From Candidatus Thiodiazotropha endoloripes (lineage in GTDB: Bacteria > Pseudomonadota > Gammaproteobacteria > Chromatiales > Chromatiaceae), in contig NZ_LVJW01000003.1 of NCBI RefSeq assembly GCF_001708965.1, positions 496,001 to 560,000 of the forward strand: a stretch of 64,000 bases of DNA. Direction: 5' to 3'. Positions within the stretch are counted from its first letter, which is position 1. Each line of letters begins with the position of its first letter. Shown here one piece after another: positions 14,207-55,071 of this stretch. The notes beneath the pieces are model-generated. The model was not told where the DNA came from and made no database searches. It was given only the letters and a program-made list of their open reading frames with translations. The position numbers were made by a program, and so were the translations under genes.

Positions 14207-14224
14207 GATCAGTGTGAGTAGGCC

Positions 14225-16458: not shown

Positions 16459-17292
16459 ATGTACAATCGAAACGCGGCCATTTCGTCTGCTGACTATGAT
16501 GCATTTAAGGATTTTCTCCAGCAGGCCTGCGGTATTCTGCTGGGAAACGGCAAGGAGTACCTGGTCTCGAGTCGTTTGAGCAGTGTCATGAAAGAGGCTG
16601 GTATTGCCTCCCTTGGTGAACTGCTGAAGCAGATCAAATCCCCCATACACTCACGCCTGAAGGTAAAGGTCATCGATGCCATGACCACCAATGAGACCTT
16701 CTGGTTTCGCGATATCGGACACTATATCCTGCTCAAGGAGACCATCCTGCCGGATCTTAATCAGCAGATGGGCGGCTCCATCCGAATCTGGTCCGCCGCC
16801 TGTTCCAGTGGCCAGGAACCCTACAACATCAGCATGATTGCCGATGAGTACCAGGCTGCAAAGGGGCGGGGCCGACAGGTTCAGATTCAAGCCACCGACA
16901 TCTCCAGCAAGATCCTCGATGAAGCCCGGGCGGGTGTCTATTGCGGTCTTGCGGTTGAACGGGGATTGACCCAGGAACAGCGGCAGCGCTTTTTCAATCC
17001 GAAAGGGGATTGCCTGGAAGTGAAGCCGGAGATCAAGCGGCGGGTCAGTTTCAAGCCGATGAATCTGGCCGACAGCTTCCACACCATGGGTCGCTTTGAT
17101 GTGATCTTCTGCCGTAACGTACTGATCTATTTCTCAAACGATCTGAAAAAAGACATCGTTGAGCGGATGGCGGATATCCTCAATCCCGGTGGTTATCTGT
17201 TTCTCGGTTCCACCGAATCGATCAATCAACTGACCAATCGTTTCGAGATGAAAGTGGGGCATGGGGGCATCTCCTACCGACTGAAAGGGTAG
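16459..17292 (+). CDS. cheR: Chemotaxis protein methyltransferase CheR
   Basis: A 277-residue SAM-dependent enzyme that methylates glutamates of chemoreceptors during adaptation. It has the helical N-terminal domain (FLQQACGILLGNGKEYLVSS), TNETFWFRD, the SAM-binding IRIWSAACSSGQEPYNISM near residues 110-127, QATDISSKILDEARAGVY and FDVIFCRNVLIYF near 213-225. Length and motif order are standard. It lies 37 bp after cheV and is probably co-transcribed from the sigma-28 site before cheV. Confidence 0.95.
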   Translation: MYNRNAAISSADYDAFKDFLQQACGILLGNGKEYLVSSRLSSVMKEAGIASLGELLKQIKSPIHSRLKVKVIDAMTTNETFWFRDIGHYILLKETILPDLNQQMGGSIRIWSAACSSGQEPYNISMIADEYQAAKGRGRQVQIQATDISSKILDEARAGVYCGLAVERGLTQEQRQRFFNPKGDCLEVKPEIKRRVSFKPMNLADSFHTMGRFDVIFCRNVLIYFSNDLKKDIVERMADILNPGGYLFLGSTESINQLTNRFEMKVGHGGISYRLKG

Positions 17293-40786: not shown

Positions 40787-41560
40787 ATGGCAATCACAGT
40801 CAACACTAACGTATTCTCCCTTGCCGCACAGAAAAACCTGAATCGTACACAATCCGATCTTCAGTCTTCAGTTCAACGCCTATCATCCGGTCTTCGCATC
40901 AACATGGCGAAAGACGACGCCGCCGGTCTGGCGATCGCCCAGTTGCAGACTGCACAGGCTCGCGGACTGACCGTAGCCCAGCGTAACATCGCGGACGGCA
41001 CATCCTTCCTGTCGGTTGCCGATGCAACCCTGCAGTCAGTCAGTGACATGATGCAGCGTCAACGTGAGCTCTCCGTACAACACGGCAGTGGCCTCTACAC
41101 CGCAGCACAGCAGGCTCTGATGTCTGTTGAGTTTGATGCGCTTACCGCAGAAATCACCGCATCACTGGGTCGTGCGACCTTTAATGGCACTGCCGTATTC
41201 GGTGGTGGCGGCACCATCGTGGTTGGTGCGAACACATCTGAAACCATCGATATTTCAGTTGCCGCACTGGCAGCCCGTACTGCTGCGATCTCCAATACCG
41301 CAACGGCTGACGCCGACCTCAACGCGGTTTCAACAGCACTTGCCAACGTTGGTGCGCTGCAGAGTCGTCTGGAACAGGCTGGTCGGGTTGCCGCCAGTAT
41401 GGAAGAAGCTCAATACGCCGCCGCCGGTCGGATCATGGATGCTGACTTCGCCCGTGAGACTGCAAAATTCACCAGCGCCCAGGTTATACAGCAGGCCGGT
41501 GTAGCCGCTCTGGCCCAGGCCAACTCGATTCCTCAGTTAGCCTTGAGCTTGCTGCAGTAA
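40787..41560 (+). CDS. fliC: Flagellin (short form)
   Basis: The filament subunit, 257 residues, at the short end of the family. N-terminal D0/D1 helices read MAITVNTNVFSLAAQKNLNR, QRLSSGLRINMAKDDAAGLA and QRNIADGTSFLSVADATLQS; C-terminal helices read QYAAAGRIMDADFARETAKF and ANSIPQLALSLLQ. Between them only about 60 residues (130-190; Gly/Ala/Thr-rich) remain, so D2/D3 are essentially absent. The canonical NSAKDDAAGL reads NMAKDDAAGL. Serines and threonines in the short central part are possible glycosylation sites for the operon at 44326-52553. A strong hairpin follows the stop codon. Confidence 0.94.
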   Translation: MAITVNTNVFSLAAQKNLNRTQSDLQSSVQRLSSGLRINMAKDDAAGLAIAQLQTAQARGLTVAQRNIADGTSFLSVADATLQSVSDMMQRQRELSVQHGSGLYTAAQQALMSVEFDALTAEITASLGRATFNGTAVFGGGGTIVVGANTSETIDISVAALAARTAAISNTATADADLNAVSTALANVGALQSRLEQAGRVAASMEEAQYAAAGRIMDADFARETAKFTSAQVIQQAGVAALAQANSIPQLALSLLQ

Positions 41561-41619: not shown

Positions 41620-42009
41620 ATGACCATGCCAAACGTAATCGCAGATTTGGCCAATCAATACGCCTATAAAAGGGAAGTTCCTAGTGCTGATGGCAAAGCT
41701 AGTGTCGACGTTAAGTCCACCGGTTCCGTTGAGCTGCAAACTATTCAGAGGCAAGCGCAAGGGCAACAGCCCGCGATCGATACCGCTGAGCTGGCGAGCA
41801 AGGTTGAGAGTCTCAATCAACTAGTTAATCGGAATTTGGAATTCAGTGTTGACGATGCCACCGGTCAACAGGTACTGCGAGTCATCGACTCCGATACCGG
41901 AGAGGTGGTTAGGCAAATACCTTCGGACCAGATCTTGCATGTTATTTCTCAGGTTCAGAAGGCCAGCGAAGGGATGCTTCAAGGCGTGTTATTGGATGAC
42001 CAGGTTTAA
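41620..42009 (+). CDS. flaG: Flagellar protein FlaG
   Basis: A 129-residue protein. The first 60 residues are low-complexity; the C-terminal domain has LNQLVNRNLEFSVDDATGQQ, VLRVIDSDTGEVVRQIPSDQ and ILHVISQVQKASEGMLQGV, the FlaG signature. FlaG affects filament length in Pseudomonas, Vibrio and Campylobacter. It sits in the usual place between fliC and fliD. A second possible start is the ATG two codons in (MPNVIADLA). Confidence 0.93.
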   Translation: MTMPNVIADLANQYAYKREVPSADGKASVDVKSTGSVELQTIQRQAQGQQPAIDTAELASKVESLNQLVNRNLEFSVDDATGQQVLRVIDSDTGEVVRQIPSDQILHVISQVQKASEGMLQGVLLDDQV

Positions 42010-42049
42010 TTAGAGAGATTGCTTACCTGTACAAAGGGGCAAGACCGAA

Positions 42050-43408
42050 ATGACTATAGGCTTTTCAGGGATAAGCACAGGGTCTGACTGGAACTCGATC
42101 ATCAACCAGCTGTTGCAGATCGAGAGTCGGCCCCTGTCCACCCTCCAATCTCGGGAACAAGAGATCGATGAGAAGATCAGCGACTTTGGGCTGGTCAAGA
42201 GCGCCATCGATACCTTCAACTCGACTGTAGAAGAGCTGACCAGCTCCAGCGGTTTTGCTGCTTTCACGGCCACCTCAACCGATGAGGCGGTACTCACAGT
42301 CTCCGCAGACTCCTCTGCGGTGGCTTCCAGTTATGATGTCGTGGTTACCCAACTGGCGAACCGCGACAAGATTGCTTCCTCTGCCTATACCGATGCCAAC
42401 ACGGCGGTCGGTACAGGCACCCTGTCGATTACCGTCGACGGCAACACCATGGATCTGGTGCTGGATGGCTCAAACAACACCCTCACGGATATTCGTGACG
42501 CGATCAACAGCGCCACCGACAATCCGGGTGTGACAGCGACCATCCTGAATGAGGCATCCGGCAGCCGATTGATTCTGACCAGTGAAGAGTCAGGGCTGGC
42601 GAATGCCATCACCGTTAATGTGACGGATGGGGATGATGCCAGCAACACCGATGCCAACGGCCTCTCAAGGCTGTTTCATATCGGTGTCGGTGGTGACGGT
42701 CTGGCGGAGCAGGTCGATACTGCTCAGGACGCCATATTGACCATTGACGGTTTCAGCATCACAGGCGCCTCGAATACAGTGACCAGTGCCATATCCGGTG
42801 TGACGCTCAGTCTGAGCGGCGCTGGTTCATCAACCATCAATATCGCCCGGGACAATACCGAGATCGAAGACAGAATCAGCGGTTTTGTGGATGCCTACAA
42901 TACCCTGATCGAGCAGATCGATGACCTGGAGGCGGGATCCCTCTATAACGACAGCAGCCTGCGGCGTATCAAGCAGGGCTTTGTCGATGTCATCAATCAG
43001 ACCGTGGATATCAGTGGTGATACGGCCTATCTCTTTGAAATCGGTATCACACGGGACAGAGACGGTGTTTTATCTGTCGATAGCAGTGAACTTTCCACGG
43101 CTTTGGCCGATGACTTTAACAGAGTGACACAGATACTCTCTGAAGCAACAACAGGCTATGCGACTCGCTTCTTCAACTACACTGAGTCGTTGCTGGAGGT
43201 AGGTGGCCTGCTCGACTCCAAAGATGACACTCTGAACAGTCAGAAAGACTCGGTGCAGACTCAGATAGAGCGTCAGGAGTTGCATTTACAAACTTATGAG
43301 GCCATGCTGATTCGACAGTTTGCCTCACTGGATCAGACCATGGCGCTGTTGACCAGCACCAGTGAATATCTGACCAGTCAACTCGCGTCAATGAACAGTA
43401 ACAACTAA
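42050..43408 (+). CDS. fliD: Filament cap protein FliD
   Basis: A 452-residue hook-associated protein 2 that caps the filament and inserts flagellin. N-terminal motifs are GFSGISTGSDWNSIINQLLQ and LQSREQEIDEKISDFGLVKS; the C-terminal domain has FVDAYNTLIEQIDDLEAGSL, YNDSSLRRIKQGFVDVINQT, FEIGITRDRDGVLSVDSSEL and the coiled end ASLDQTMALLTSTSEYLTSQ. Length is normal. It precedes fliS by 44 bp. Confidence 0.96.
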   Translation: MTIGFSGISTGSDWNSIINQLLQIESRPLSTLQSREQEIDEKISDFGLVKSAIDTFNSTVEELTSSSGFAAFTATSTDEAVLTVSADSSAVASSYDVVVTQLANRDKIASSAYTDANTAVGTGTLSITVDGNTMDLVLDGSNNTLTDIRDAINSATDNPGVTATILNEASGSRLILTSEESGLANAITVNVTDGDDASNTDANGLSRLFHIGVGGDGLAEQVDTAQDAILTIDGFSITGASNTVTSAISGVTLSLSGAGSSTINIARDNTEIEDRISGFVDAYNTLIEQIDDLEAGSLYNDSSLRRIKQGFVDVINQTVDISGDTAYLFEIGITRDRDGVLSVDSSELSTALADDFNRVTQILSEATTGYATRFFNYTESLLEVGGLLDSKDDTLNSQKDSVQTQIERQELHLQTYEAMLIRQFASLDQTMALLTSTSEYLTSQLASMNSNN

Positions 43409-43452
43409 CCTGGTTGTTGGTTTGGACTTGATCAAACAACCCAAAAGGTAAA

Positions 43453-43878
43453 ATGATGGTAAAGAATTCGGCTATCAACAGTTATCGTCAAGCGGCTTCC
43501 TCCGAAGCGATGTATGCTACCCCTTTTAGGTTGGTGCAGATGCTTATGACCGGTGCATTGGATGGTATGGCCAATGCCAGAGGATCGATTATCCGTAAGG
43601 AGCATGAGGCCCGTAACAACGAAATTAAATGGGTGATATCGGTGATCGATGCCCTGCGCGGCGCCCTCGATTTCGAACAGGGTGGAGAGATCGCCAACAA
43701 TCTCGATATGCTCTACGATTACATGATCCGCCGCCTCTTCACTGCCAATGTGGAACAGGATGTTGATGCGCTGGATGAAGTGATCTCGTTGTTGAAAGAG
43801 ATCAAAACCGCTTGGGATGCAATGCCGGAAGCAATCCAGAATTCGCCCAACATCAAAGAGACGGTTAAAAAGTTCTAG
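43453..43878 (+). CDS. fliS: Flagellin export chaperone FliS
   Basis: A 141-residue helical chaperone that binds the C-terminal D0 helix of flagellin and prevents premature polymerisation. Key segments are SYRQAASSEAMYATPFRLVQ, MLMTGALDGMANARGSI, NNLDMLYDYMIRRLFTANVE and DEVISLLKEIKTAWDAMPEA, matching FliS throughout. AAAGG precedes the tandem ATGATG; the first is used. Confidence 0.95.
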   Translation: MMVKNSAINSYRQAASSEAMYATPFRLVQMLMTGALDGMANARGSIIRKEHEARNNEIKWVISVIDALRGALDFEQGGEIANNLDMLYDYMIRRLFTANVEQDVDALDEVISLLKEIKTAWDAMPEAIQNSPNIKETVKKF

Positions 43879-43919
43879 CTTCCTTTTCTTAAAACTGACA
43901 GCAGTGGACTTTATATCCC

Positions 43920-44237
43920 GTGTCGCAGCTCCAGAAAAATCTGACCCAGGCACTCGAATTGAGCCAAAGGATATTTGATTTGGCGCAGGACTCCGCCTGG
44001 AGTGACATGGAGCAGGCGGATCGGCAGCGAAGACCGTTCCTGGAATCGATCTTCAACGACAGGGAGTTCAAACTCAAACCAGGGGATTATGAACCCCAGA
44101 TGCGTCAGATCGTCGCACTCAACGAGCAGGCGCTGGCCCTCTGTGCTGAGGCCAGAGGGGAGCTGAGTAAACAGGGTCGCAATCTTAAACTGGGCAGGCA
44201 AGCCCTCTCAGCCTATAAGAATAACTCCTTTGATTAG
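43920..44237 (+). CDS. fliT: FliT-like flagellar chaperone
   Basis: A 105-residue, all-helical protein starting at GTG 43920. The FliT-type pattern is seen in LTQALELSQRIFDLAQDSAW, MEQADRQRRPFLESIFND and the C-terminal ELSKQGRNLKLGRQALSAYK. FliT proteins are chaperones of the filament cap FliD and, in enterics, regulate FlhDC. Sequence similarity in this family is low; position directly after fliS carries much of the call. The gene ends the filament block. Confidence 0.8.
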   Translation: MSQLQKNLTQALELSQRIFDLAQDSAWSDMEQADRQRRPFLESIFNDREFKLKPGDYEPQMRQIVALNEQALALCAEARGELSKQGRNLKLGRQALSAYKNNSFD

Positions 44238-44325: not shown

Positions 44326-45294
44326 TCACTGCACCACCTTTGCAGAGGCGTGAGTGTCAGTCCACATCTCCTTGATCAGTCCAGTCAATCCCAAGGTTGG
44401 TGCCGGTGTATCGTATGCGATGAGTCTGTGCAGCTGTTTGAGATTGTGAAAGGGTACATTGGGATACATATGGTGTTCGATATGGTAGTTCATCTGCCAG
44501 TATAGAAAAGCCAGCAGAGGATTCAGTAGGATAGTACGAGAATTCTTTCGGAAGTCAGTTACATTGGCTTGCATGCCAAAGTGCTGACCCGTCGCCAATA
44601 CCACATTGAACCAGCTCAGTATAAATGGTGCCAGGGTGATGACGAAGACCAGTGGCCAATGCCCGCTGGTAATGAACATCCCAGCCAGCAACAGCTGACC
44701 CGCTAACAGGAAGCGGGCCCAATGAATCACTTTTTTGCGCTGTTTTGACCACTTGTTGGGGAACAGTCTGTCACTCCATGAGCCGCGTAGAATGCCCAGG
44801 CTGTTTTCAGTAGTGATCTTAATCGCCCGATAGCAGAGGGGCAGGTTGAAGGATACTGCCCAGAGCCAGGAACCGATGGAGAGTTTTTGCGGCAGGATCA
44901 CCTCCTGGTCAAGCTCCTTGTGCACTGTGTATTTATGGTGATAGGCGTGGCTGACAGAGAAATAGTAGGGGTTGTTCCAGCTCAAGAATGCAAACAATTT
45001 ATAAAAGAGATCGTTAAGCCCCTTGGATTTGAAAACGGTTCTATGCATCAACTCATGTCCGGCCCCCGACCATCCCAGAAACGCATATACGGCACCGTGA
45101 AGAGCGAGTGTGATCAACCCTATCATCCAGGCTTGTTGTTGCAGAAAGTAGTATGCAGCACTACCGCTGATCAGCAGCAGTGTGAGATGTAAGAAAATAT
45201 AGAGGGCACCCTTGAGATCACTCTTCTTCATCAGTGAGCTGAGTTGCTGCCTGGAGAGAGGGGTTCTGTACCAGGATATCTTCGGCTGGTTCAA
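44326..45294 (-). CDS. Membrane fatty acid desaturase-family protein
   Basis: A 322-residue membrane di-iron enzyme. The three histidine boxes are GAGHELMH (HxxxH, near residue 80), SHAYHHKYT (near 115) and NYHIEHHMYPNVPFHN (near 275), with hydrophobic segments around 30-70, 190-235 and 250-270. The family desaturates or hydroxylates acyl chains, sphingoid bases or carotenoids. It overlaps the upstream methyltransferase gene by 4 bp and is last in the seven-gene operon, so it may act on an acyl or lipid-linked glycan intermediate; that is inference. Confidence 0.85.
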   Translation of the reverse strand: MNQPKISWYRTPLSRQQLSSLMKKSDLKGALYIFLHLTLLLISGSAAYYFLQQQAWMIGLITLALHGAVYAFLGWSGAGHELMHRTVFKSKGLNDLFYKLFAFLSWNNPYYFSVSHAYHHKYTVHKELDQEVILPQKLSIGSWLWAVSFNLPLCYRAIKITTENSLGILRGSWSDRLFPNKWSKQRKKVIHWARFLLAGQLLLAGMFITSGHWPLVFVITLAPFILSWFNVVLATGQHFGMQANVTDFRKNSRTILLNPLLAFLYWQMNYHIEHHMYPNVPFHNLKQLHRLIAYDTPAPTLGLTGLIKEMWTDTHASAKVVQ

Positions 45295-46022
45295 ATGAGG
45301 ATCTCCTTGTACTTGCCTAACAACATGAACGCGAGCATGGTGTTTTGTACATGAATGATCTCATGTTCCGTGGCAAAGCCGTCAAGGAAACGGGTGACAT
45401 CATCATGGATCTGGGAGCGGAAATCGTGCCAGACAATGATCCCGTCATCGGCAGCCATTTTTAAAGCATTTTCAGTGTCGGACTTCACCGTATTGAAGTC
45501 GTGTCCGCCATCGATGAATATCAGTTGAAAGTGCTTCATGAATTTCTGCTGCTGTGGGTCGATGCTGGTGCTGTCCTGATGGATCCGGATGATTTTCTGT
45601 TTCAGTTCCGCTTCCGCCCGATCGATGTAGATGGCGCCATTCGTGGCAAAGATGTCTTTGAGGTGTTCATCATTTGCATCCCCGTCACTCAGATAGTCTG
45701 CTTCACTGATATCATTTTGGGTGACTGTCGTGTCGGGGTCGATATCAATGGTGACAACTGAGGTCGAGGTTGGTGAGTTGCGGGCGAACAGCAGTGTGGT
45801 GGCCCCCATGTAGGTGCCAAACTCAAATATTGCTGTGGGTGTGATGAGTTTGACAAAGGAGGTCAGGATGGCGCTCTCCAACAGTGTCAGTCCGCCGATG
45901 GCACTACTGGGAATGTTGACGGTGAACTCACTGTTCTGATCCTGGAAGCGGTTCTCAACGGCTTGGAAAACCACCTTTGGGCGAATTTCGGTAATCCTTG
46001 AAGGGTTGCTCTGCTGGTTCAT
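45291..46022 (-). CDS. SAM-dependent methyltransferase (class I, Methyltransf_24-like)
   Basis: A 243-residue class I methyltransferase. The SAM-binding glycine-rich motif is AIFEFGTYMGATTLLFARN (about residues 64-82), followed by TIDIDPDTT (acidic loop), HFQLIFIDGGHDFNTVKSDT and DDGIIVWHDF. These match small-molecule O-methyltransferases and cephalosporin-hydroxylase-like proteins often found in glycan clusters. The target is unknown; a sugar or acyl hydroxyl is likely from context. It starts 30 bp after the FkbM gene and overlaps the desaturase by 4 bp. Confidence 0.85.
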   Translation of the reverse strand: MNQQSNPSRITEIRPKVVFQAVENRFQDQNSEFTVNIPSSAIGGLTLLESAILTSFVKLITPTAIFEFGTYMGATTLLFARNSPTSTSVVTIDIDPDTTVTQNDISEADYLSDGDANDEHLKDIFATNGAIYIDRAEAELKQKIIRIHQDSTSIDPQQQKFMKHFQLIFIDGGHDFNTVKSDTENALKMAADDGIIVWHDFRSQIHDDVTRFLDGFATEHEIIHVQNTMLAFMLLGKYKEILI

Positions 46023-46052
46023 GGAAGATCCTTACTGCTTAGGGCCTGTTAT

Positions 46053-47165
46053 TTAATTCTGCTTAATGTTCGCCGGTATGAAATACATGATGGTCTCAGA
46101 CCAACCTTCAGTATAGTGGCGAAGATAGACCTGATAATCTGGGTATAAGCCGGTGACGTAATCAAATATCCTGCGGAAATCCGCTGCCTGATGATAGACG
46201 GCGATGGCCAGGCTGGGCCGGTCATCTTGAATGTGTATTCTGGCCCCTTGCAGCGCCTGCAGTTCCCAGCCCTCCAGGTCCATCTTTATAAAACTGATCG
46301 GCTCGCTCACAGCCTGATCCAGGGTGGTGACTTGAATCTGTTGTGAGCTTTGAGGATCGACGGCACTGGCCGATCCCGCCTCGGTATCAAAGGGTAGACT
46401 TCCCTGCTGATCTGAGAGCCCCTGGGCGATAAACGTGATATTACGTTGATGCTTTAGGCGACGACGAGCATTGGCCAGATTGGTTGGAGTTGGCTCAAAC
46501 AGATAGACCTGTCTGTAACCAGGATATCGATGGCAGAACTGCTCTGTTGTGTCACCATCATAACCACCCCCATCCACAAACACATGGGCTGCTGATGGTT
46601 CGATAAAAGGCTCGAAATACTGCTCTTCCGGTCGAACAGAGTAGCCACTCATGTAGTGATAGTCACCGCTCAGGCGAAAATGAAGCAGGTCATTCAGTGT
46701 CTGTTGTGATTGCTTGTCTACCAATGCCGTTGACAAACTGTTCCAGGCAGAGAGATGGTTACGAATCTCGTCACGGGTTTGACTGACAAACCAGGGTAAC
46801 TTGAAGCGCTGCGGCAGATGGCTGCATAGTTCGGCCAGGGATAGGATTTCAATCGCGCCATGTTTTTGCAGTCGACGGGCAGCAGAAACCGGTGCGATGC
46901 ACATGGCGCAATTGACCACCATGGACTGGTCTGGCAGTTGCTCAGTGGTTAACACCGGCTTGTTGTTCCAGGTGGTTCCGTTGGTTGCGAAGTCATCAAT
47001 GATGCCATCGACCTCTATCATCTGCATGATCTCGGCGGCATGTTCATTTCTGCCCAACAGATAACGACGACCGCTGGCGGTATCAGAGACGTACTGCTCC
47101 ACCAGTAGACTGTTTCCGGCAGGTTTTGAAAGGCAGGATTGCAGTATCACCTCAACGGTTGACAT
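46053..47165 (-). CDS. FkbM-family methyltransferase with N-terminal extension
   Basis: A 370-residue protein. Residues about 1-150 form a separate domain with YLLGRNEHAAEIMQMIEVDG and IDDFATNGTTWNNKPVL, resembling a nucleotide-sugar-type or PglD-like N-terminal fold. Residues about 185-350 are the FkbM methyltransferase (HVFVDGGGYDGDTTEQFCHR, VYLFEPTPTNLANARRRL, the hallmark FIKMDLEGWELQALQGARI). FkbM enzymes methylate sugar or polyketide hydroxyls. ATG 47165 lies 2 bp after the upstream stop codon and is preferred over the longer frame to 47216. Confidence 0.87.
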   Translation of the reverse strand: MSTVEVILQSCLSKPAGNSLLVEQYVSDTASGRRYLLGRNEHAAEIMQMIEVDGIIDDFATNGTTWNNKPVLTTEQLPDQSMVVNCAMCIAPVSAARRLQKHGAIEILSLAELCSHLPQRFKLPWFVSQTRDEIRNHLSAWNSLSTALVDKQSQQTLNDLLHFRLSGDYHYMSGYSVRPEEQYFEPFIEPSAAHVFVDGGGYDGDTTEQFCHRYPGYRQVYLFEPTPTNLANARRRLKHQRNITFIAQGLSDQQGSLPFDTEAGSASAVDPQSSQQIQVTTLDQAVSEPISFIKMDLEGWELQALQGARIHIQDDRPSLAIAVYHQAADFRRIFDYVTGLYPDYQVYLRHYTEGWSETIMYFIPANIKQN

Positions 47166-47167
47166 CG

Positions 47168-48325
47168 CTAATCCTGACTGCTGTCGGTATTCGTTGTGGC
47201 TTGAACATTGACCCACTTCCGTTGTTTGAAGGACCGAATCATGGCGGCGAACATATTGGTCCCTTCCAGTGCAAGTTCTCCGCTGTAGACCTCATCGGAG
47301 TGCCATTGTGATGACGCTTGGTAGGCTATCAGTCCTGCAGCGATATCCTGGTAGAGATTGGCAAAGGCTTCGACAAACCCTGCCGGGTGTCCCGCCTTAA
47401 AGCGGGTATAACGAGACGCGCCGGCAATCTCGGTTGTCTCACCCCGATCCAGGATCTGCCGCCGTCCATCGGCATGTGAGATGTGCAACTCTTCAGGATT
47501 AGCCTGCAGCCACTCTGCTGAGGCGTCACTGCCGTAGATGCGTATTTTCAATCCGTTCCTATGGCCCAGGGCCGATTTGCTGAACCATAACTGTCCCATG
47601 ATCTGCGCAGAATATCGGCACAGGCAGGAGACATTGTCGATGACATCGAACCAGCCGCATTTGGCCTGATCCGCAACCACCTGCAACGGATGCTGCCCTG
47701 TCAGGTAGTGGATCAACTGATGCAGGTGAACCGCCAGATCCAGGTAGATGGTGGGGATCTCTCCATCATGCAGCCGCCAATCCTGAGGCACAGGTTTCTC
47801 ACCCTGGCTGTCTACTCTGCGAAACCCCTCCTGCGGCATCTCGGCCTGAAAGTGGAGGATCCTGCCGAGTTCACCACTGCGGATCAGGGAGCGTAATTCA
47901 CGCAGCATGGGATAGCCGGAGTAGTTGTAAGTGATTGCGAGAAAGCCGTTGTGCTGATTGCGGGTTGTCAGTATCTCCTCTATCTCAGCGCTGCTGGTGG
48001 CGAGGGCCTTTTCGCAGATAACCGCAACACCCTGAGCCAGACATTCCGTGACGATGGGCTGGTGTGAAGGTGTTGGGGTGAGAATTACCACAGCATCCAG
48101 TTGTCCTTTCTCTTTACTGATCATCTCAGACCAGTGGCTGTAGGTACGTTCAGGGGTGACCCCATAGGCTTTGGCTGTCTCCCGGTTGATGGTGTCATCT
48201 GTACTGAAAGCACCAGCCACCAGTTGCCAACGACCGTCCATGCGGCATGCGGCATAGTGGGTATAACCCACTGCAGAGTCCAAAGCGCCACCAATGAATG
48301 CTAAGGCAAGGGGGCTGGCTGTCAT
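47168..48325 (-). CDS. Gfo/Idh/MocA-family oxidoreductase
   Basis: A 385-residue NAD(P)-dependent sugar oxidoreductase. The Rossmann part has LALAFIGGALDSAVGYTHYA, VVILTPTPSHQPIVTECLAQ and the GFO/IDH hallmark CEKALATSSAEIEEIL (EKA instead of the usual EKP). The C-terminal half has EIPTIYLDLAVHLHQLIHYL (catalytic D-x3-H) and ends in a basic tail. Relatives oxidise inositol, UDP-sugars or sugar phosphates. It is translated 21 bp after the ATP-grasp gene and immediately before the FkbM gene, so a role in building an unusual sugar is likely. Confidence 0.88.
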   Translation of the reverse strand: MTASPLALAFIGGALDSAVGYTHYAACRMDGRWQLVAGAFSTDDTINRETAKAYGVTPERTYSHWSEMISKEKGQLDAVVILTPTPSHQPIVTECLAQGVAVICEKALATSSAEIEEILTTRNQHNGFLAITYNYSGYPMLRELRSLIRSGELGRILHFQAEMPQEGFRRVDSQGEKPVPQDWRLHDGEIPTIYLDLAVHLHQLIHYLTGQHPLQVVADQAKCGWFDVIDNVSCLCRYSAQIMGQLWFSKSALGHRNGLKIRIYGSDASAEWLQANPEELHISHADGRRQILDRGETTEIAGASRYTRFKAGHPAGFVEAFANLYQDIAAGLIAYQASSQWHSDEVYSGELALEGTNMFAAMIRSFKQRKWVNVQATTNTDSSQD

Positions 48326-48346
48326 TCACAACTCCTTAATTCCGGC

Positions 48347-49498
48347 TCAGTCAAGTGTATAGAGCTTAGCTTCAAGAATACTCTGATAGAGTCTATGTTG
48401 CTCCTTGCTGGATGATGAACCAAAGAAAAACACACCGGCTCTGCCGTAGGGGCTTGGTTCAATATAGTCCCCTGATGTGGCAAGGGGGACAAACAAACGA
48501 ATATCCACAGGCTCTGTAAATTGGTAGCCCCAGAGGGAACTGCCATGCTTGGAGGTTACGGTATGGCGGGTGATCAGCGACTGTAGTCGGTCTTTATCAT
48601 AGGCTTGGGGGGCTTCACCAAGGAAGCTGGCGGCATAGTTTGCGGCATAGGGATAACCTGTCGCCAGTTCGATCAGCAGAGCATAAATGTCGCCGGGGCA
48701 GCGTCGGGTCGCCTCGATTATCCAATAGTCATCGTTGCGATAGATGAACTGGGTATGGATCAAACCCTCAGTCAGGCTCATGGCGGCGGCGAAGCGGCCA
48801 ATGTCATCCCTGATCGAGGTGAGTGACTGATCTGGGAAGTCATCCGCCACCCGGCTCGTGTCTACGGTGAATGGGTTGATGGTGCAATCCTCTCTAACGA
48901 TAAAGTCCGCCACAATCTTACCTGCATGGAGATAGGCGGAGTGGCTGTAGAGCTGTCCTTCAATAAACTCTTCGATAACTGTCTCGCCGCTGCCGGAGGC
49001 CTTGGCTGCTTCTGTTTGTGCTTCTATAAGCTTGTCAGGTGTTGCATCATATACCACACTGATACCCCGCCCACTGAACGAGTCGACCGGCTTGACGATG
49101 ACCGCCTCAACTTCAGTTATCTGGGCCAATGTCAAACTGCGTGGGATGGGTAGCCCCACATTTCCGGCGAGTTCACGGAAGGCGCTCTTATTGTTGATGG
49201 TCTCGGTGGTGGAGAGGGGATCGATATTGGGATAGCGCCCCCGATTGATCTCAGCGCAGGCCCGGTAGGAGAGGTCGGTGCAGCCGGGTATCAGATAGTC
49301 AAAGCTGTGTTTGTCGACAAACGCGGCTAGTGCTTTGATATCGGAATAATCCAACCTTTTATAGTTTGACGCCAGCTTGGCCAGTGTCTCATCGGGTCTG
49401 TTTCCCACTACCCATACCTCATGGCCCCTCTCCCGCAGCGCACGATAGATCGGCACAGCAGCGCGATTGGTGTCCACCAGTAGGATTCGGCTAGTCAT
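48347..49498 (-). CDS. ATP-grasp ligase (carboxylate-amine type)
   Basis: A 383-residue ATP-grasp protein. It has a PreATP-grasp domain (SRILLVDTNRAAVPIYRAL, VWVVGNRPDETLAKLASNYK), the ATP-binding loop VIVKPVDSFSGRGISVV, ETVIEEFIEGQLYSHSAYLH and the metal site DYWIIEATRRCPGDIYALLI. Such enzymes form amide bonds by way of an acyl phosphate. Beside a sugar aminotransferase it could attach an amino acid or small acid to an amino sugar. ATG 49498 has GGGAG upstream; the frame reaches GTG 49513, which would overlap the previous stop. Confidence 0.85.
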   Translation of the reverse strand: MTSRILLVDTNRAAVPIYRALRERGHEVWVVGNRPDETLAKLASNYKRLDYSDIKALAAFVDKHSFDYLIPGCTDLSYRACAEINRGRYPNIDPLSTTETINNKSAFRELAGNVGLPIPRSLTLAQITEVEAVIVKPVDSFSGRGISVVYDATPDKLIEAQTEAAKASGSGETVIEEFIEGQLYSHSAYLHAGKIVADFIVREDCTINPFTVDTSRVADDFPDQSLTSIRDDIGRFAAAMSLTEGLIHTQFIYRNDDYWIIEATRRCPGDIYALLIELATGYPYAANYAASFLGEAPQAYDKDRLQSLITRHTVTSKHGSSLWGYQFTEPVDIRLFVPLATSGDYIEPSPYGRAGVFFFGSSSSKEQHRLYQSILEAKLYTLD

Positions 49499-49509
49499 GC
49501 TGCTCCCTA

Positions 49510-50628
49510 TCACCCTGGCACGGCATTGTCTCGTACAATCTGGGCGATTCGTTCAACAGTCTCCGCTGTGAGGTCGGCATAGAGGGGCAGGCAGATCACC
49601 TGTTTGGCAGCGGTAACTGCAATTTGTAGACGATCCGGAGCGGCGGAGGGCAGTCCCCGATAGGCTGGCAGCTGACTGATTAACGGATAGAAATATCGGC
49701 GTCCGTAAATCGACTCATGCTGCAGGATCTGATAGAGCTGATCCCGACTTTTACCATAGGATTGCTGCTCGACAAAAATAGGGCAGTAGGCTCCGTTGGG
49801 AGTCAGGTGTTCGATAGGATCGAGCAGTGTTATGCCGGGGATGTTGTTGAGAAGCTGCCTGTAGAGTTCGGCCAGTTGTACCCGTTGTCTGATGCTCTCA
49901 TCAACATGTTTCAACTGCAGTAGACCCAGAGCGGATTGCATCTCATTCATCTTACCGTTACTTCCTGGTGCCACCACGGTGGTTTCGTTGGCAAAACCAA
50001 AATTTTTCAGGTAGTCGACCCGTCGTTTCAGTTTTTCGTCATGGATTACCAGTGCCCCGCCTTCAAAGGTGTTGAACACCTTGGTGGCATGGAAGCTGAG
50101 GATGGATAGATCACCGAAACTACACAGCGAAGTGCCATTAAGTTTGGTGCCGAAGGCATGGGCGGCATCATAGATCACTTTCAAACCATAGGTGTCGGCA
50201 ATATGCTTAATGCTCTCTATGCGGCATGGCATACCGTAGACATGCACTGGCAGGATGCAGGTGGTCTTGGGGGAAATAAGAGATTCTATTTTCTCAGGAT
50301 CTATGTTGCATGTAAGTGGGTCGATATCACAAAAGACCGGGGTACAGTGATTCCAGTAGATGGCATGGGTCGTGGCCGGAAAGGTGTAGGGAGTGGTGAT
50401 CACCTCACCGGTGATTTTTAGTGACTGCAGGCCAACTTGCAGGGCCATCATGCCATTGCAGAAAAGGGAAACAAAAGGGACGTCCAGGTACTCAGCCAGT
50501 GCGTTTTCAAACTGTTCATGAAAGGGGCCATTGTTGGTCAGCCTTTTGCTCGACCAGATCTGTTGCAGCAGTTGAACAAATTCATCGAGTGGTGGTAGAG
50601 AAGGCTGGGTGACGTAGGTGTTACTCAT
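49510..50628 (-). CDS. DegT/DnrJ/EryC1/StrS sugar aminotransferase
   Basis: A 372-residue PLP enzyme that aminates keto-sugars bound to nucleotides. It shows RLTNNGPFHEQFENALAEYL, FCNGMMALQVGLQSL, TTPYTFPATTHAIYW, VIYDAAHAFGT (Asp154) and the PLP-lysine segment SFHATKVFNTFEGGALV (Lys183). The pattern is nearest VioA/FdtB-type transaminases acting on dTDP-4-keto-6-deoxy sugars. It follows the OGT gene by 59 bp and is translated just before the ATP-grasp gene. Product: probably a dTDP-amino-deoxyhexose; the exact position of the amine is not decidable. Confidence 0.9.
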   Translation of the reverse strand: MSNTYVTQPSLPPLDEFVQLLQQIWSSKRLTNNGPFHEQFENALAEYLDVPFVSLFCNGMMALQVGLQSLKITGEVITTPYTFPATTHAIYWNHCTPVFCDIDPLTCNIDPEKIESLISPKTTCILPVHVYGMPCRIESIKHIADTYGLKVIYDAAHAFGTKLNGTSLCSFGDLSILSFHATKVFNTFEGGALVIHDEKLKRRVDYLKNFGFANETTVVAPGSNGKMNEMQSALGLLQLKHVDESIRQRVQLAELYRQLLNNIPGITLLDPIEHLTPNGAYCPIFVEQQSYGKSRDQLYQILQHESIYGRRYFYPLISQLPAYRGLPSAAPDRLQIAVTAAKQVICLPLYADLTAETVERIAQIVRDNAVPG

Positions 50629-50687
50629 GGTCTATGCCCCTGACAGAGGAGTGCAATGGTAGAATAGTACGAAGAAGTTTGTTGTCA

Positions 50688-52553
50688 TCAACTCTCCCGC
50701 TTTCGTTCATCGCATAGTGTCTGCCATCCTCTGAGCAGGGCAGATTCGATGTTTTCGGTGACCAGTTTGAAATTCATCAACGATGAGTTTTCTATATCGG
50801 TTCGCAGGGAATTGCGATTGGCGATGAGTCCATCCACATCCTTGGCGAGTGACAGGGCGATTTCGATATATTCATCAAAATCATTGGCAACCCACTGTTC
50901 TCTGTTGATGGCAGCGAGGATTCTGTTTGAGACATTGGAAGCGCAGGAGTTGCCGGCACGAGTGACCAGCGGCAGACCCATCAGTAGCGAGTAATAGGTG
51001 GTACTCTCCCCATGATAGGGGTAAGGATCCAGTGCAATATCCACTTCGTTATGTGAGGTGAGAAACTCCCCTAATGAGAGCCTGGGTTGTAGTTGTAAGC
51101 GGTTTTGATCAACCTGGAACTGGGAGAAAATCTCATGTAAATAGTCCCGCATGTATTTATTTTCATAGTCATCCGTCATCAATCGTATCCTTGATCCGGG
51201 AACTGCATTTAACAATTTAGCCCAGACTTCCATGACGCTTTTGTCGATCTTGCGCAGACCGTTGAATGAGCCAAAGGTAATGTATCCATTACTGATGCAG
51301 GGGGGCGGAGCGACAGGAGGTAGTTCCATCAACGGATCAAAGAAGGCGCTGTTTTCAACCGGCAGAATCTTCTCGGATGAATATTGATCGAGCTGACATT
51401 TTTCTGCGGTCTGTTTGTCTCTCAAGGCGTAATCCATACAATTCAGACCGGTGGACATTTGCAATCCCATCATGGAAACCTGCATCGGTGCTGGCCTGTT
51501 GAGGAAGGCGGTCAAGCGATTGCCGGCGGTATTGTTGGATAGGTCGATCAGGATGTCCACTTGGTCAGTGCGTATTTTGTCTTGAAAATGTTTGTCATCC
51601 ATCTGACTGCAGTTGACCCAGACATCGCAGAGGTTTTCCAGCGCATTGCTGGTCTGGTCCTGAATGATTTTGTTGGAATAGAGAATGATGGTGAATCTAT
51701 CTTTGTTCAGATGTTTCAACACCGGCAGGAAGTAGTGGACAATGGCATGTTGAATTAAATCGGCTGAGACGAAGCCAAGGGTGAGCTTTCTGTCGAGCTG
51801 ACAGTTCATCTCTCCAGCATATTTTTTCCGTACACGGGCATTTAGCGGCTTGGTTAATTCGGCTATTTCCGGATAGATCTCAGCTTCATTATCCAGGGAG
51901 AACAACAGTTGCGCCAGATAGTTCTGTTGTGCGACCGCATGATCAGGGGCCAGTTCAACAGATTTTTTACAACAGGCCAGGGCCTCTTCCTGGCGTCCCT
52001 GGTGTGATAGGGCATGGCCCAGGTTCACATAGACCTCCACGGTTTCATAACCATGGGTCAGGCAGTAATCCAGTGCTTGCAGCGCATCCTCGTAGCGGCC
52101 CTGATCGTTATAGAGTTTGCTCAGCGCTACATAGGCGACATAGGCATTGGGGTCGTTGGTGATGGTTTTACCAAAATAGACTTCCGCTTTAGCGAAATTT
52201 TGTGTGATGTTGGCATTGAAACTGCCAATCATGTAGTACATCAAATTTTCGCTGCATCCCAGACGCTCTGCAATTTCGTAGGATTTTTCCGCTTCCTGGA
52301 ATTGACCCGATTTCTCTAAGGCCATGCCACACAGATAGTAGAGGCAAGGTTCCGGGTTGCCCATCGATATGGCTTGTTGCAGATGGAGTGCCGCCTCCTG
52401 ATTGCGATTTTGTCGTAACAGACATTGGCCCAGAAGATATTGTGCCTGGCCATTGGTCGGGTCTTTTTTAATCACCCTGGAGAATAGCTTGCCCGCCTCT
52501 GCCAGTTTACCCTGATTGAGTTTTTTTATTGCTGTGGATAGGTTGTTTGGCAT
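50688..52553 (-). CDS. TPR protein with SPINDLY/OGT-type glycosyltransferase domain (GT41)
   Basis: A 621-residue protein: about six tetratricopeptide repeats (residues 1-225; for example AQYLLGQCLLRQNRNQEAAL, VYVNLGHALSHQGRQEEALA) and a GT41 O-linked GlcNAc-transferase-like domain (about 255-610) with LGFVSADLIQHAIVHYFLPV, DILIDLSNNTAGNRLTAFLN, RPAPMQVSMMGLQMSTG, YITFGSFNGLRKIDKSVMEV and DIALDPYPYHGESTTYYSLL. Bacterial relatives glycosylate serine/threonine of flagellin or adhesins. It heads a seven-gene operon that runs toward the filament block, so flagellin is the best acceptor candidate. ATG 52553 is used instead of TTG 52571. Confidence 0.88.
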   Translation of the reverse strand: MPNNLSTAIKKLNQGKLAEAGKLFSRVIKKDPTNGQAQYLLGQCLLRQNRNQEAALHLQQAISMGNPEPCLYYLCGMALEKSGQFQEAEKSYEIAERLGCSENLMYYMIGSFNANITQNFAKAEVYFGKTITNDPNAYVAYVALSKLYNDQGRYEDALQALDYCLTHGYETVEVYVNLGHALSHQGRQEEALACCKKSVELAPDHAVAQQNYLAQLLFSLDNEAEIYPEIAELTKPLNARVRKKYAGEMNCQLDRKLTLGFVSADLIQHAIVHYFLPVLKHLNKDRFTIILYSNKIIQDQTSNALENLCDVWVNCSQMDDKHFQDKIRTDQVDILIDLSNNTAGNRLTAFLNRPAPMQVSMMGLQMSTGLNCMDYALRDKQTAEKCQLDQYSSEKILPVENSAFFDPLMELPPVAPPPCISNGYITFGSFNGLRKIDKSVMEVWAKLLNAVPGSRIRLMTDDYENKYMRDYLHEIFSQFQVDQNRLQLQPRLSLGEFLTSHNEVDIALDPYPYHGESTTYYSLLMGLPLVTRAGNSCASNVSNRILAAINREQWVANDFDEYIEIALSLAKDVDGLIANRNSLRTDIENSSLMNFKLVTENIESALLRGWQTLCDERKRES

Positions 52554-52646
52554 GTTCACCCAATTGTCCAAATTGTCACATCACGGGGCTCAATGCCTGT
52601 CAGCATCTAACCAACTCTAAAGTTAGCAGATTATGGGTTGTAGTGG

Positions 52647-53465
52647 TCAGCCCAGGATCAGCTCCAGTACCACTTTGGTGCCGAAATAGGCCAGCATCAG
52701 TACCACGAAACCACTGAGAGTCCAGATCAGTGCCTTCTGGCCGCGCCAGCCAAACCGGTATCGTCCCCATAACAGGGTTCCGAACACCAGCCAGGCGATA
52801 ATCGACAGGATGGTTTTATGTGCCAATTGTTGCTGGAACATGTTTTCCAGAAATGCGAAACCTGAGAGCAGGGCCAGACTGAGCAACACAAAGCCCACCG
52901 CAATCATTTCGAACAGCAGGCTCTCCATGGTCTGCAGTGGCGGCAGTGCGCGAATGAAACCCCCCGGGTGGCGCTGGCGTAAGTGGTGATCCTGAATCGC
53001 CAACAGCACCGCCTGTACACTCGCCAGGGTAAACAGACTGTAGGCCAGCATCGAGACCAGGATGTGTATGGTCAGTCCGGAAGAGAGCTGACCGCTGAGA
53101 AAATGGACCGTCTGATAGCGGTTCTCCAGAAAGATCGCAATGGCGGCAATCGGCATGATGAAAATACCCAGATTTTCAACCGGCTTGGTCAGACTTGAGA
53201 TCAGCAGCAGGAGGGTGATGGTCCAGGCAATCAACGACATGGCATTGAAAATGCCCATGTTGAATCCCGATGTGGCCATCAGATTCTGGTAGTGGGGGAT
53301 TGCGTGCAGCAGGATGCCGAGAAAGCCCAGACCAAGGGCCAGTGACCTGGGTAAACCTGAACCGATGCGGCCGTTGAACAGGCGCAGTGCAATGACAGTT
53401 CCGGTTGCCAGGTAGGCGATAATGGCGAGTGTCGCGGTCAAAGGTGAAACTTCTCTTGAAATCAA
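52647..53465 (-). CDS. ypjD: YpjD-like inner-membrane protein (cytochrome c assembly / CcsA-HemX family)
   Basis: A 272-residue protein with eight or so hydrophobic helices, ending TLSGFVVLMLAYFGTKVVLE. It matches the CcsA/HemX-like YpjD group (VHFLSGQLSSGLTIHILVSM, LASVQAVLLAIQDHHLRQRH, ALPPLQTMESLLFEMIAVGF), which lies beside ffh in many gammaproteobacteria, as here. The complete WWD haem-handling motif of true CcsA proteins is not seen. Function is not well established. It is divergent from ffh (208-bp gap), and 93 bp separate its stop from the OGT gene. Confidence 0.88.
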   Translation of the reverse strand: MISREVSPLTATLAIIAYLATGTVIALRLFNGRIGSGLPRSLALGLGFLGILLHAIPHYQNLMATSGFNMGIFNAMSLIAWTITLLLLISSLTKPVENLGIFIMPIAAIAIFLENRYQTVHFLSGQLSSGLTIHILVSMLAYSLFTLASVQAVLLAIQDHHLRQRHPGGFIRALPPLQTMESLLFEMIAVGFVLLSLALLSGFAFLENMFQQQLAHKTILSIIAWLVFGTLLWGRYRFGWRGQKALIWTLSGFVVLMLAYFGTKVVLELILG

Positions 53466-53673
53466 TGGACTTAGCGGATATTCGCATATTTGACCGCTGC
53501 TGTGAAAGGGCGATCTTCAACACTTGCCAACTTCTTTGCTGCAAAAGCAGATTTAACGGGAGCAGATGGCCGGAGCTGGTATATAATCACCGGTTCGACT
53601 CACCCGGCGCTGTTGGTAGAGGGCTATACTCTTGCGGCCGAAGTGAAAATTCAAGCGAACGATCGAGACGGAT

Positions 53674-55071
53674 ATGTTTGACAATCTGACACAAAGACTG
53701 GGCAAGGTTCTGACCAATTTACGGGGCCAGGGCCGCCTGACGGAAGAGAATATCAAAGAGACCATGCGTGAGGTGCGCATGGCTCTGCTCGAGGCGGATG
53801 TGGCGCTGCCGGTGGTGCGGGAGTTTGTCGATCGGGTGAAGCAGAAGGCGATGGGCGAAGAGGTGATGAAGAGCCTCACCCCAGGCCAGACCCTGATTAA
53901 AATCGTCAACGATGAACTGGTTCAGGTGATGGGTGAGGCCAACGAGTCTCTCGATCTGACCGCCCAGCCGCCAGCAGTGATCCTGATGGCTGGTCTGCAG
54001 GGTTCCGGTAAGACCACCAGTGTCGCCAAACTCTCACGCTGGTTGCAGCAGCAGGGTAAAAAGAAGGTCAGTGTGGTCAGTTGTGACGTCTATCGTCCCG
54101 CTGCGATCGACCAGTTGCAGACGCTATCCAAAGAGGTGGAAGCCAATTTCATCCCCAGTCAGGGGGATGAGAAGCCGGTTAAAATCGCCAAGCGGGCGAT
54201 GGAGACGGCGAAGCGGGATTTTGCCGAGGTGCTGATCGTCGATACCGCCGGTCGTCTGCATGTGGATGGGGAGATGATGGAGGAGATCAAACAGCTCCAT
54301 CAGGTTCTCGACCCGGTCGAGACCCTGTTCGTGGTCGACAGCATGACCGGTCAGGATGCGGCCAATACCGCCAAGGCATTCAACGATGCACTTCCCCTCA
54401 CTGGTGTGATTCTCACCAAGGCGGACGGTGATGCCCGGGGCGGTGCCGCTCTGTCGATACGTCAAATCACCGGCAAACCGATCAAGTTCATCGGTGTCGG
54501 GGAAAAGACCGATGCTCTGGAGCCCTTCCATCCGGATCGTATCGCCTCGCGGATTCTCGGTATGGGCGATGTGTTGACCCTGGTGGAGGAGGTCAGCCGC
54601 AAGGTCGACCAGGATAAGGCCGCCAAGCTGGCGAAAAAACTGCAGAAAGGCAAAGGTTTCGATCTGGAGGACTTCAAGGAGCAGATGCTGCAGATGTCTA
54701 AAATGGGTGGCATGAGTGGTCTGCTCGATAAGCTGCCCGGAATGGGCGAGCTGCCGGATCATGTGAAAAATCAGGTGGATGACAAGCAGGTGGGACGACT
54801 GATCGCGATCATCAACTCGATGACCCCCCATGAGCGCGCCTTTCCCGCGGTGATCAAGGGTTCAAGAAAACGGCGCATCGCCGCCGGATCCGGTACCCAG
54901 GTGCAGGATGTGAACAAGCTGCTGAAACAGTTCACCCAGATGCAGAAGATGATGAAGAAGATGAAGGGTGGCGGCATGAAGAAGATGATGCGCGGGCTGG
55001 GCGGCCGATTCCCCGGGGGCGGTATGCCTGGCGGCGGCATGCCCGGTGGTGGCGGTGGATTTCCCTTCTGA
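53674..55071 (+). CDS. ffh: Signal recognition particle protein Ffh
   Basis: The 465-residue SRP54 GTPase that, with 4.5S RNA and FtsY, targets nascent inner-membrane proteins. Domains: helical N (1-90), GTPase G (about 95-295; GLQGSGKTTSVAKL, VDTAGRLHVDGEMM, ILTKADGDARGGAALS) and Met-rich M domain (about 325-435; EDFKEQMLQMSKMGGMSGLL). The C-terminus is a Gly/Met/Pro-rich low-complexity tail (GGGMPGGGMPGGGGGFPF). Monocistronic or divergent with ypjD; the rpsP operon follows with its own promoter. Confidence 0.97.
   Translation: MFDNLTQRLGKVLTNLRGQGRLTEENIKETMREVRMALLEADVALPVVREFVDRVKQKAMGEEVMKSLTPGQTLIKIVNDELVQVMGEANESLDLTAQPPAVILMAGLQGSGKTTSVAKLSRWLQQQGKKKVSVVSCDVYRPAAIDQLQTLSKEVEANFIPSQGDEKPVKIAKRAMETAKRDFAEVLIVDTAGRLHVDGEMMEEIKQLHQVLDPVETLFVVDSMTGQDAANTAKAFNDALPLTGVILTKADGDARGGAALSIRQITGKPIKFIGVGEKTDALEPFHPDRIASRILGMGDVLTLVEEVSRKVDQDKAAKLAKKLQKGKGFDLEDFKEQMLQMSKMGGMSGLLDKLPGMGELPDHVKNQVDDKQVGRLIAIINSMTPHERAFPAVIKGSRKRRIAAGSGTQVQDVNKLLKQFTQMQKMMKKMKGGGMKKMMRGLGGRFPGGGMPGGGMPGGGGGFPF

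What the first reader, a model, noticed from the sequence alone, without database searches (positions are those of the whole stretch)
44326..52553. Seven-gene operon that may build and attach an unusual flagellin glycan
A TPR-GT41 (SPINDLY/OGT) transferase, DegT aminotransferase, ATP-grasp ligase, Gfo/Idh oxidoreductase, FkbM and class I methyltransferases and a membrane desaturase are spaced by 59, 11, 21, 2, 30 and -4 bp, next to fliC-flaG-fliD-fliS-fliT. Amine formation followed by ATP-grasp amide bond formation and methylation suggests an N-acylated, methylated amino-deoxy sugar, analogous to the modified viosamine on Pseudomonas flagellin but using ATP-grasp instead of an acyltransferase. 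The desaturase is an odd partner.
Basis: partly seen in the sequence, partly recalled or inferred. Interest (0 to 1): 0.65.

Follow-up and report, generated by a model that had tools for sequence, protein, structure and literature searches.

The report
Swappable flagellin sugar-tagging gene cassette
A clam-symbiont bacterium carries, beside its flagellin genes, a seven-gene cassette that very probably builds an unusual amide-bearing, methylated sugar and attaches it to the flagellum protein; close relatives keep the attaching enzyme and the first amino-sugar step but swap the decorating genes, so this is a new variant of a known kind of system.

Summary
In detail: all seven genes, their families, order and gaps are as described, and all are under purifying selection. 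The host is a Candidatus Thiodiazotropha (lucinid-clam symbiont). The cassette lies between fliT and ccsA in 6 of 22 genomes of the genus; in two close relatives that junction is empty (about 17 bp). All 15 GT41-bearing genomes have the short-flagellin type of flagellar genes; the six with the other type have none. Relatives without this cassette carry the GT41 elsewhere with other decoration genes, always beside a DesI/VioA-like aminotransferase. The GT41 tree follows the cassette, not the host. The DegT, ATP-grasp, Gfo/Idh trio recurs in 72-75 of 79 loci; in eight outside the genus it lies within 10 kb of fliC, fliD, flgK or flgL, with different transferases (GT41, HMW1C-like, Maf, GT2), but it also occurs away from flagellar genes. 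Best reading: dTDP-viosamine is amidated by the ATP-grasp ligase, oxidised and methylated, and moved by GT41 onto flagellin. Chemistry and target are inferred. Published gene-content precedents exist (Dickeya; C. difficile type B), so this is a new variant, not a new category. The desaturase is a conserved partner of the adjacent methyltransferase.

The parts
50688..52571 (-). GT41 (SPINDLY/OGT-type) glycosyltransferase with N-terminal TPRs, 621-627 aa; predicted to transfer the finished sugar to flagellin
   Evidence: PF13844 118.8 bits and TPR families; best PDB match SPINDLY, E 3.8e-75; SPY K665, H495, D491, Y744 equivalents K441, H275, D271, Y519 conserved
49510..50628 (-). DegT aminotransferase, 372 aa, DesI/VioA-like (dTDP-4-keto-6-deoxyglucose 4-aminotransferase predicted)
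   Evidence: PF01041 E 2e-100; best NCBIfam hit DesI, below its cut-off; best PDB match 2po3 E 3.3e-68, next 1.8e-43; PLP lysine K183
48347..49513 (-). ATP-grasp carboxylate-amine ligase, 383-388 aa (ATG at 49498)
   Evidence: PF13535; profile hit to L-amino acid ligase BL00235; model pLDDT 95.6, highest TM-scores 0.80-0.81 to L-amino acid ligases 3vot/BacD/YwfE; invariant K109, K141, E181, E267, R270, R271 in 55 homologues
47168..48325 (-). Gfo/Idh/MocA oxidoreductase, 385 aa; catalytic K106 and D196xxxH200 invariant
46053..47216 (-). FkbM-family methyltransferase, 370 aa from ATG 47165
   Evidence: PF05050/TIGR01444
45291..46022 (-). class I methyltransferase (PF13578), 243 aa
   Evidence: recurs with the desaturase in other genera
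44326..45294 (-). membrane FA_desaturase-family enzyme, 322 aa, three intact His boxes (HxxxH 80-84, HxxHH 116-120, HxxHH 271-275)
   Evidence: PF00487 99.1 bits; His boxes invariant in 13 homologues; model pLDDT 85
40787..41560 (+). fliC, short flagellin (257 aa), presumed acceptor; 18 Ser/Thr in residues 96-173
41620..44237 (+). flaG, fliD, fliS, fliT
   Evidence: assigned from ORF sequences and synteny; orthologues in the genomes compared
52647..55071 (.). ccsA-like (-, 52647-53465) and ffh (+, 53674-55071): right flank of the insertion point; fliT and ccsA stops are about 17 bp apart in G006/G136

Best explanation
A flagellin glycosylation cassette. Inferred pathway: RmlA/RmlB encoded elsewhere in the genome make dTDP-4-keto-6-deoxy-D-glucose; the DesI/VioA-like DegT aminates C4 (dTDP-viosamine, Qui4N); the ATP-grasp enzyme uses ATP to join a small carboxylic acid (hydroxy or amino acid, unidentified) to the 4-amino group as an amide; the Gfo/Idh enzyme either makes that acid or oxidises the sugar; the FkbM and PF13578 enzymes O-methylate; the diiron membrane enzyme probably hydroxylates (or desaturates) the acyl part, giving the PF13578 enzyme a new OH; finally the GT41 enzyme, holding flagellin by its TPRs, transfers the residue directly to Ser/Thr of the short flagellin in the cytoplasm before export. 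Shown here: gene content, families, intact catalytic motifs, purifying selection, location, distribution, swapping of cassettes, recurrence beside flagellar genes. Inferred: every reaction and the target.
For: Families and motifs. rmlB and rmlA above curated cut-offs in the same genome, and rmlB-rmlA-like ORFs inside the Neptuniibacter locus fliC-flaG-fliD-fliS-GT41-rmlB-rmlA-DegT-Gfo-ATPgrasp (L100; rml named from sequence). Cassette at the fliT|ccsA junction in 6 of 6 carriers, empty site in G006/G136. GT41 in 15 of 16 genomes with this flagellar type and 0 of 6 with the other (Fisher p 9e-5). The DegT of each GT41 cassette type is DesI-like (2po3 best for A, B and C). GT41 tree rejects the host clade, p-AU 7e-130. 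Outside the genus the trio lies within 10 kb of fliC/fliD/flgK/flgL in 8 of 74 loci versus about 0.5 expected (p 3e-8), with GT41 (L070, L081, L100, L104), HMW1C-like (L132), Maf (L124), GT2-like (L120); Pantoea latae L135 has it beside a FliA-like ORF. ATP-grasp fold nearest L-amino acid ligases by TM-score.
Against: No mass, glycopeptide or mutant data. The trio occurs in loci with no flagellar gene in reach, so it is a general sugar module. GT41 cassettes B and C of the same genus are not next to fliC. The link between GT41 and flagellar type could reflect one clade's history (16 related genomes), so the Fisher p is not free of phylogeny. Nucleotide (dTDP or UDP), 4-amino versus 3-amino position and the acid were not determined; the DegT scores below the DesI curated cut-off (305 vs 650). 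Only one sigma28-like match in the window, inside the ATP-grasp gene and compatible with chance.
Confidence: 0.66

Rival explanations
1. The cassette makes a decorated amino sugar that GT41 attaches to another protein (another flagellar or cytoplasmic protein), flagellin being only a neighbour.
For: GT41/OGT-type enzymes modify many cytosolic proteins (general knowledge); cassettes B and C are not at the fliC locus; no glycosite data.
Against: Repeated adjacency to fliC/fliD in unrelated lineages and with Maf, a known flagellin transferase; GT41 limited to genomes with one flagellar type; insertion exactly after the fliC-fliT block.
Confidence: 0.15
2. The cassette makes a sugar of a surface polysaccharide (O-antigen or capsule) and sits beside the flagellar genes by accident.
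For: Homologous DegT/ATP-grasp/Gfo/FkbM sets occur in loci without flagellar genes, some with GT2-type transferases and rml genes (G037 L048, G032 L053, L066, L067, L071).
Against: The only transferase in the cassette is TPR-GT41, a protein-modifying type; no polymerase or flippase; GT41 is inherited with the cassette.
Confidence: 0.08
3. Same flagellin cassette, different chemistry: the ATP-grasp enzyme does not acylate the 4-amino group but, for example, joins an amino acid to a uronic carboxylate or builds a dipeptide cap, as in C. difficile type B glycans, with the Gfo/Idh enzyme acting at sugar C3.
For: ATP-grasp carboxylate-amine ligases are versatile; C. difficile type B flagellin has a taurine-Ala-Gly cap on Fuc3N and an ATP-grasp plus dehydrogenase plus FdtB set (PMC5207245, PMC5207246).
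Against: No UDP-hexuronate-forming or peptide-forming partner in the cassette; the aminotransferase is closest to DesI rather than to the 3-aminotransferases (QdtB scores 1.2e-39 vs DesI 3.3e-68).
Confidence: 0.2

Closest known systems
Dickeya zeae fliA-fliC cluster fkbM-fkbM-(carbamoyl-phosphate synthase, dehydrogenase)-vioA-rfbC (PMC7575072)
   Same: Flagellin locus; VioA, FkbM, an ATP-grasp-type gene and a dehydrogenase together; other strains keep vioA and rfbC but swap in fatty-acid and acyltransferase genes, the same swapping logic as in Thiodiazotropha.
   Different: Transferase is RfbC, not TPR-GT41; no PF13578 methyltransferase-desaturase pair described; homology of the individual proteins not tested here; function of the ligase and dehydrogenase untested.
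Pseudomonas syringae viosamine island (PMC3927599)
   Same: 372-aa VioA-type aminotransferase, N-acylated and O-methylated viosamine on flagellin.
   Different: Acyl group made and attached by VioS/VioR/ACP/VioB; transferred by VioT (1173 aa) onto rhamnose; island is not beside fliC. No ATP-grasp, Gfo/Idh or desaturase among its seven genes.
Clostridium difficile type B flagellin modification CDR20291_0244-0247 (PMC5207245, PMC5207246)
   Same: DegT aminotransferase (FdtB), NAD-type dehydrogenase-like protein and PF13535 ATP-grasp in one flagellin cluster; the amino sugar carries an amide-linked cap.
   Different: 3-amino sugar, ornithine-cyclodeaminase-like dehydrogenase, FemAB protein, GT2 transferases, tetrasaccharide.
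Shewanella oneidensis sfmABCDE (PMC3765264)
   Same: ATP-grasp_4 protein and methyltransferase needed for full modification of short polar flagellins.
   Different: Nonulosonic-acid glycan, Maf-like proteins nearby, no DegT in the operon.
Enterobacterial flagellin glycosylation islands (PMC4875605) and Caulobacter FlmG (PMC7591256)
   Same: GT41/SPINDLY enzymes, DegT and FkbM genes in fliC-fliA islands; FlmG shows a TPR domain plus GT-B domain protein modifying flagellins.
   Different: No ATP-grasp, Gfo/Idh or desaturase mentioned in the island paper; FlmG works with pseudaminic acid.

Membership tests
Flagellin glycosylation island | Glycosyltransferase plus sugar-biosynthesis genes inserted at the flagellin locus | tested here: met
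Flagellin glycosylation island | Flagellin carries the glycan | not testable with these tools
   needs mass spectrometry
GT41, SPINDLY/OGT type | TPR superhelix plus Glyco_transf_41 domain with catalytic lysine | tested here: met
   K441 aligned to SPY K665, Y519 to Y744
P. syringae-type viosamine island | VioA-type aminotransferase | tested here: inconclusive
   DesI is the best PDB match and the length, 372 aa, equals VioA's (PMC3927599), but no direct alignment to VioA was made
P. syringae-type viosamine island | VioB acyltransferase with ACP, VioS, VioR and VioT | tested here: not met
   none in the seven genes
DesI equivalog (TIGR04427) | score over curated cut-off 650 | tested here: not met
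   305 bits, best of all NCBIfam models; same reaction remains likely, not shown
ATP-grasp_4 carboxylate-amine ligase | ATP-grasp fold with ATP and Mg residues, nearest to amino-acid ligases | tested here: met
   biotin carboxylases also match by fold
Gfo/Idh/MocA oxidoreductase | EK motif and DxxxH motif | tested here: met
   K106, D196, H200 invariant in 19 homologues
FA_desaturase superfamily | three histidine boxes | tested here: met
   substrate unknown
C. difficile type B-like amide-capped glycan | peptide-type cap on the amino sugar | not testable with these tools
   needs glycan structure

The most novel reading that the evidence does not exclude
A new way of building a protein-linked glycan: an ATP-grasp ligase makes the N-acyl bond on dTDP-viosamine, a membrane diiron enzyme plus PF13578 methyltransferase then hydroxylates and O-methylates the acyl arm, and a SPINDLY-type GT41 with a donor range unlike OGT or SPY puts this single residue on flagellin; the bacterium's relatives exchange the decorating module as a unit to change the flagellar surface.
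Probability: 0.35. Interest if true: 0.62.

Novelty: new variant of a known kind. Interest (0 to 1): 0.46.

Why it matters
If right, it gives a testable enzymatic route (ATP-grasp) to N-acylated viosamine, a donor class for GT41 enzymes beyond UDP-GlcNAc and GDP-fucose, and a role for a desaturase-family enzyme in sugar decoration. The genus offers natural cassette swaps, empty sites and a likely broken GT41 against up to 97% identical flagellin, so the effect of the flagellar glycan can be compared between near-identical symbionts.

Tried and rejected
Sigma28 promoter search: one chance-level match inside the ATP-grasp gene. Sigma70 and terminator scans near the shuffled mean. PDB sequence search gave nothing for the PF13578 enzyme or the desaturase profile; the desaturase fold search gave only chloroplast Ycf2/Orf2971-FtsHi complex subunits at E about 1e-4 and SCD1 at E 0.5. 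A paper search for mycobacterial glycopeptidolipid N-acyl sugars found nothing usable in the library, so that analogy (M. bohemicum locus L116) rests on memory and is not used as evidence. Flagellin Ser/Thr sites that track the cassette: none evident in the alignment, FliC 97-98% identical between cassette A and B strains. Rejected: chance neighbours, pseudogenes (dN/dS), pure polysaccharide operon (no polymerase, flippase or polysaccharide transferase).
Full report
Check of the observation. Start codons matter for the gaps: with ATG 49498 (ATP-grasp) and ATG 47165 (FkbM) the gaps are 59, 11, 21, 2, 30 and -4 bp. All seven genes are intact and under purifying selection: dN/dS 0.07-0.19 against the G067 orthologues. 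GC is 0.51 against 0.55-0.58 in the flanks, in keeping with a mobile cassette.

Where it is. Records matching genomes of the same genus are titled Candidatus Thiodiazotropha, sulfur-oxidising symbionts of lucinid clams. In 22 genomes of the genus the cassette (type A) is present in six: G000, G067, G114, G119, G058, G071, between fliT and ccsA; it is contiguous in G000 and G071 and spans a contig break in the others. In G006 and G136, whose FliC is 97% and Ffh 99-100% identical to the window's, fliT and ccsA are separated by about 17 bp and nothing else: a clean presence/absence site.

What the relatives without it do. A Pfam search shows one GT41 in 15 of the 22 genomes. The nine GT41 carriers without cassette A have the gene elsewhere. 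In seven (G003, G006, G008, G009, G019, G043, G136; type B) it is followed by a pentapeptide-repeat protein and an L-lactate/malate-dehydrogenase-like protein, and further by methyltransferases (PF13578 where present, PF13489), a NeuD/PglD-like protein (by sequence look only), an AMP-binding ligase, a sulfotransferase and a DegT; families were scanned in G009. In two (G018, G060; type C) it lies beside a DegT, a sulfotransferase and a WbqC-like protein. The DegT of all three types has DesI (2po3, read here as dTDP-4-keto-6-deoxyglucose 4-aminotransferase from general knowledge) as clearly best PDB match: 3e-68, 2e-105, 3e-98. So the amino sugar and the transferase are constant and the decoration module is exchanged. 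GT41 proteins of type A are 70-88% identical to the window's but 53-55% to types B and C, although G006/G136 are near-identical to the window strain elsewhere; the GT41 tree rejects the host clade (p-AU 7e-130) and the host-gene tree rejects the type A clade (p-AU 4e-48). GT41 is thus inherited with its sugar module.

Link to flagellin. By FliD sequence the genus falls into two flagellar types: 16 genomes at 58% identity or more to the window (FliC 253-274 aa where read) and six at about 34-38% (FliC about 490 aa where read). GT41 is in 15 of the 16 and none of the six (Fisher p 9e-5, not corrected for kinship). The exception, G047, has a TPR protein and a sulfotransferase at the fliT|ccsA junction instead. 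Outside the genus, 74 further loci found with the ATP-grasp alignment were read with profiles for fliC, flaG, fliD, fliS, flgK, flgL: eight lie within 10 kb of such genes against about 0.5 expected (p 3e-8; my estimate of chance is 26 kb in 4 Mb). These use different transferases: GT41 (L070, L081, L100 Neptuniibacter, L104 Salinicola), HMW1C-like (L132), Maf (L124, fliC-Maf-DegT-ATPgrasp-Gfo) and a 1257-aa protein that looks like GT2 (L120, not scanned); L139 follows flgK-flgL-like genes with no transferase assigned. Pantoea latae L135 has the trio with FkbM near a FliA-like ORF and a GT2 protein, the site of enterobacterial islands (PMC4875605); FliA there was recognised from sequence only. 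The trio is near-constant: ATP-grasp in 75, Gfo/Idh in 73 and DegT in 72 of 79 loci. It is also found in loci without flagellar genes in reach, some with rml genes and GT2 proteins, so it is a portable sugar module and not flagellum-specific.

How it probably works. rmlB and rmlA above curated cut-offs lie together elsewhere in this genome. DegT would give dTDP-viosamine. The ATP-grasp model (pLDDT 95.6) has its highest listed TM-scores (0.80-0.81) with L-amino acid ligases (3vot, BacD, YwfE), though 4dim ranks first by E-value and biotin carboxylases also match; together with the swap for an AMP-binding ligase in type B this points to amide formation on the amine. Gfo/Idh has intact K106 and D196xxxH200; a dehydrogenase of another family accompanies the ligase in type B (Ldh_2) and in C. 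difficile (ornithine-cyclodeaminase-like, PMC5207246), so supply of the acid is a fair guess, sugar oxidation the alternative. The desaturase keeps three His boxes in 13 homologues and a homologue is present in 14 of the 15 loci with the PF13578 methyltransferase, in Alpha-, Beta- and Gammaproteobacteria; hydroxylation followed by O-methylation is the simplest joint role (inference). GT41 keeps SPY's K665, H495, D491 and Y744 equivalents; Y744 is critical for SPY's use of GDP-fucose, also a 6-deoxy sugar (PMC9715652); SPY S496 is Ala here. FlmG shows that a TPR-GT of similar build can modify flagellins in the cytoplasm (PMC7591256).

Comparison with the known. The kind is known: flagellin glycosylation islands. 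Close gene-content precedents are Dickeya zeae strains with fkbM-fkbM, a carbamoyl-phosphate synthase gene, a dehydrogenase gene, vioA and rfbC between fliA and fliC, replaced in other strains by fatty-acid and acyltransferase genes (PMC7575072), and the C. difficile type B locus. Shewanella SfmE is a further ATP-grasp protein in flagellin modification. I did not align those proteins with this one. New here: the combination with TPR-GT41, the methyltransferase-desaturase pair, the exchange of whole modules with their GT41 between near-identical genomes, and the breadth of the DegT/ATP-grasp/Gfo trio across transferase types.

Verdict. Observation confirmed; interpretation largely right in outline, with published precedents it did not know and unproven chemistry. 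New variant of a known kind; interest 0.46.

Noticed in passing
L151 (G047) 10486-12943: At the same fliT|ccsA junction the only short-flagellin genome without GT41 carries a TPR protein and a sulfotransferase (overlapping ORFs in two frames, perhaps one broken gene): a possible flagellin-sulfation system at the same hotspot.
   Followed up: partly
L148 (G008) 9574-11050: The GT41 gene in a single-contig genome has a 440-bp internal deletion (frame lost) relative to a 98.5% identical gene in G009, a natural GT41 loss or an assembly error.
   Followed up: partly
genus-wide: Two distinct flagellar types occur in Candidatus Thiodiazotropha (short FliC about 257 aa with GT41; long FliC about 490 aa without).
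   Followed up: partly
L102 (Limnobacter humi) 8761-17059: All seven functions occur in one run in another order with a distant, GT41/HMW1C-like transferase (clusters with L132, which matches HMW1C_N), with no flagellar genes within 10 kb; other Limnobacter loci have DegT-ATPgrasp-Gfo-GT only.
   Followed up: partly
L093, L095, L097, L098, L105, L107, L108, L109, L130, L136, L138: The PF13578 methyltransferase and desaturase recur next to each other in Phenylobacterium, Sphingomonas, Rhizobium, Tateyamaria and Neptuniibacter.
   Followed up: partly
L116 (Mycobacterium bohemicum) 7781-11146: DegT, a 354-aa protein that looks like Gfo/Idh, and ATP-grasp in a row in a mycobacterium, perhaps for a glycolipid N-acyl sugar.
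   Followed up: no
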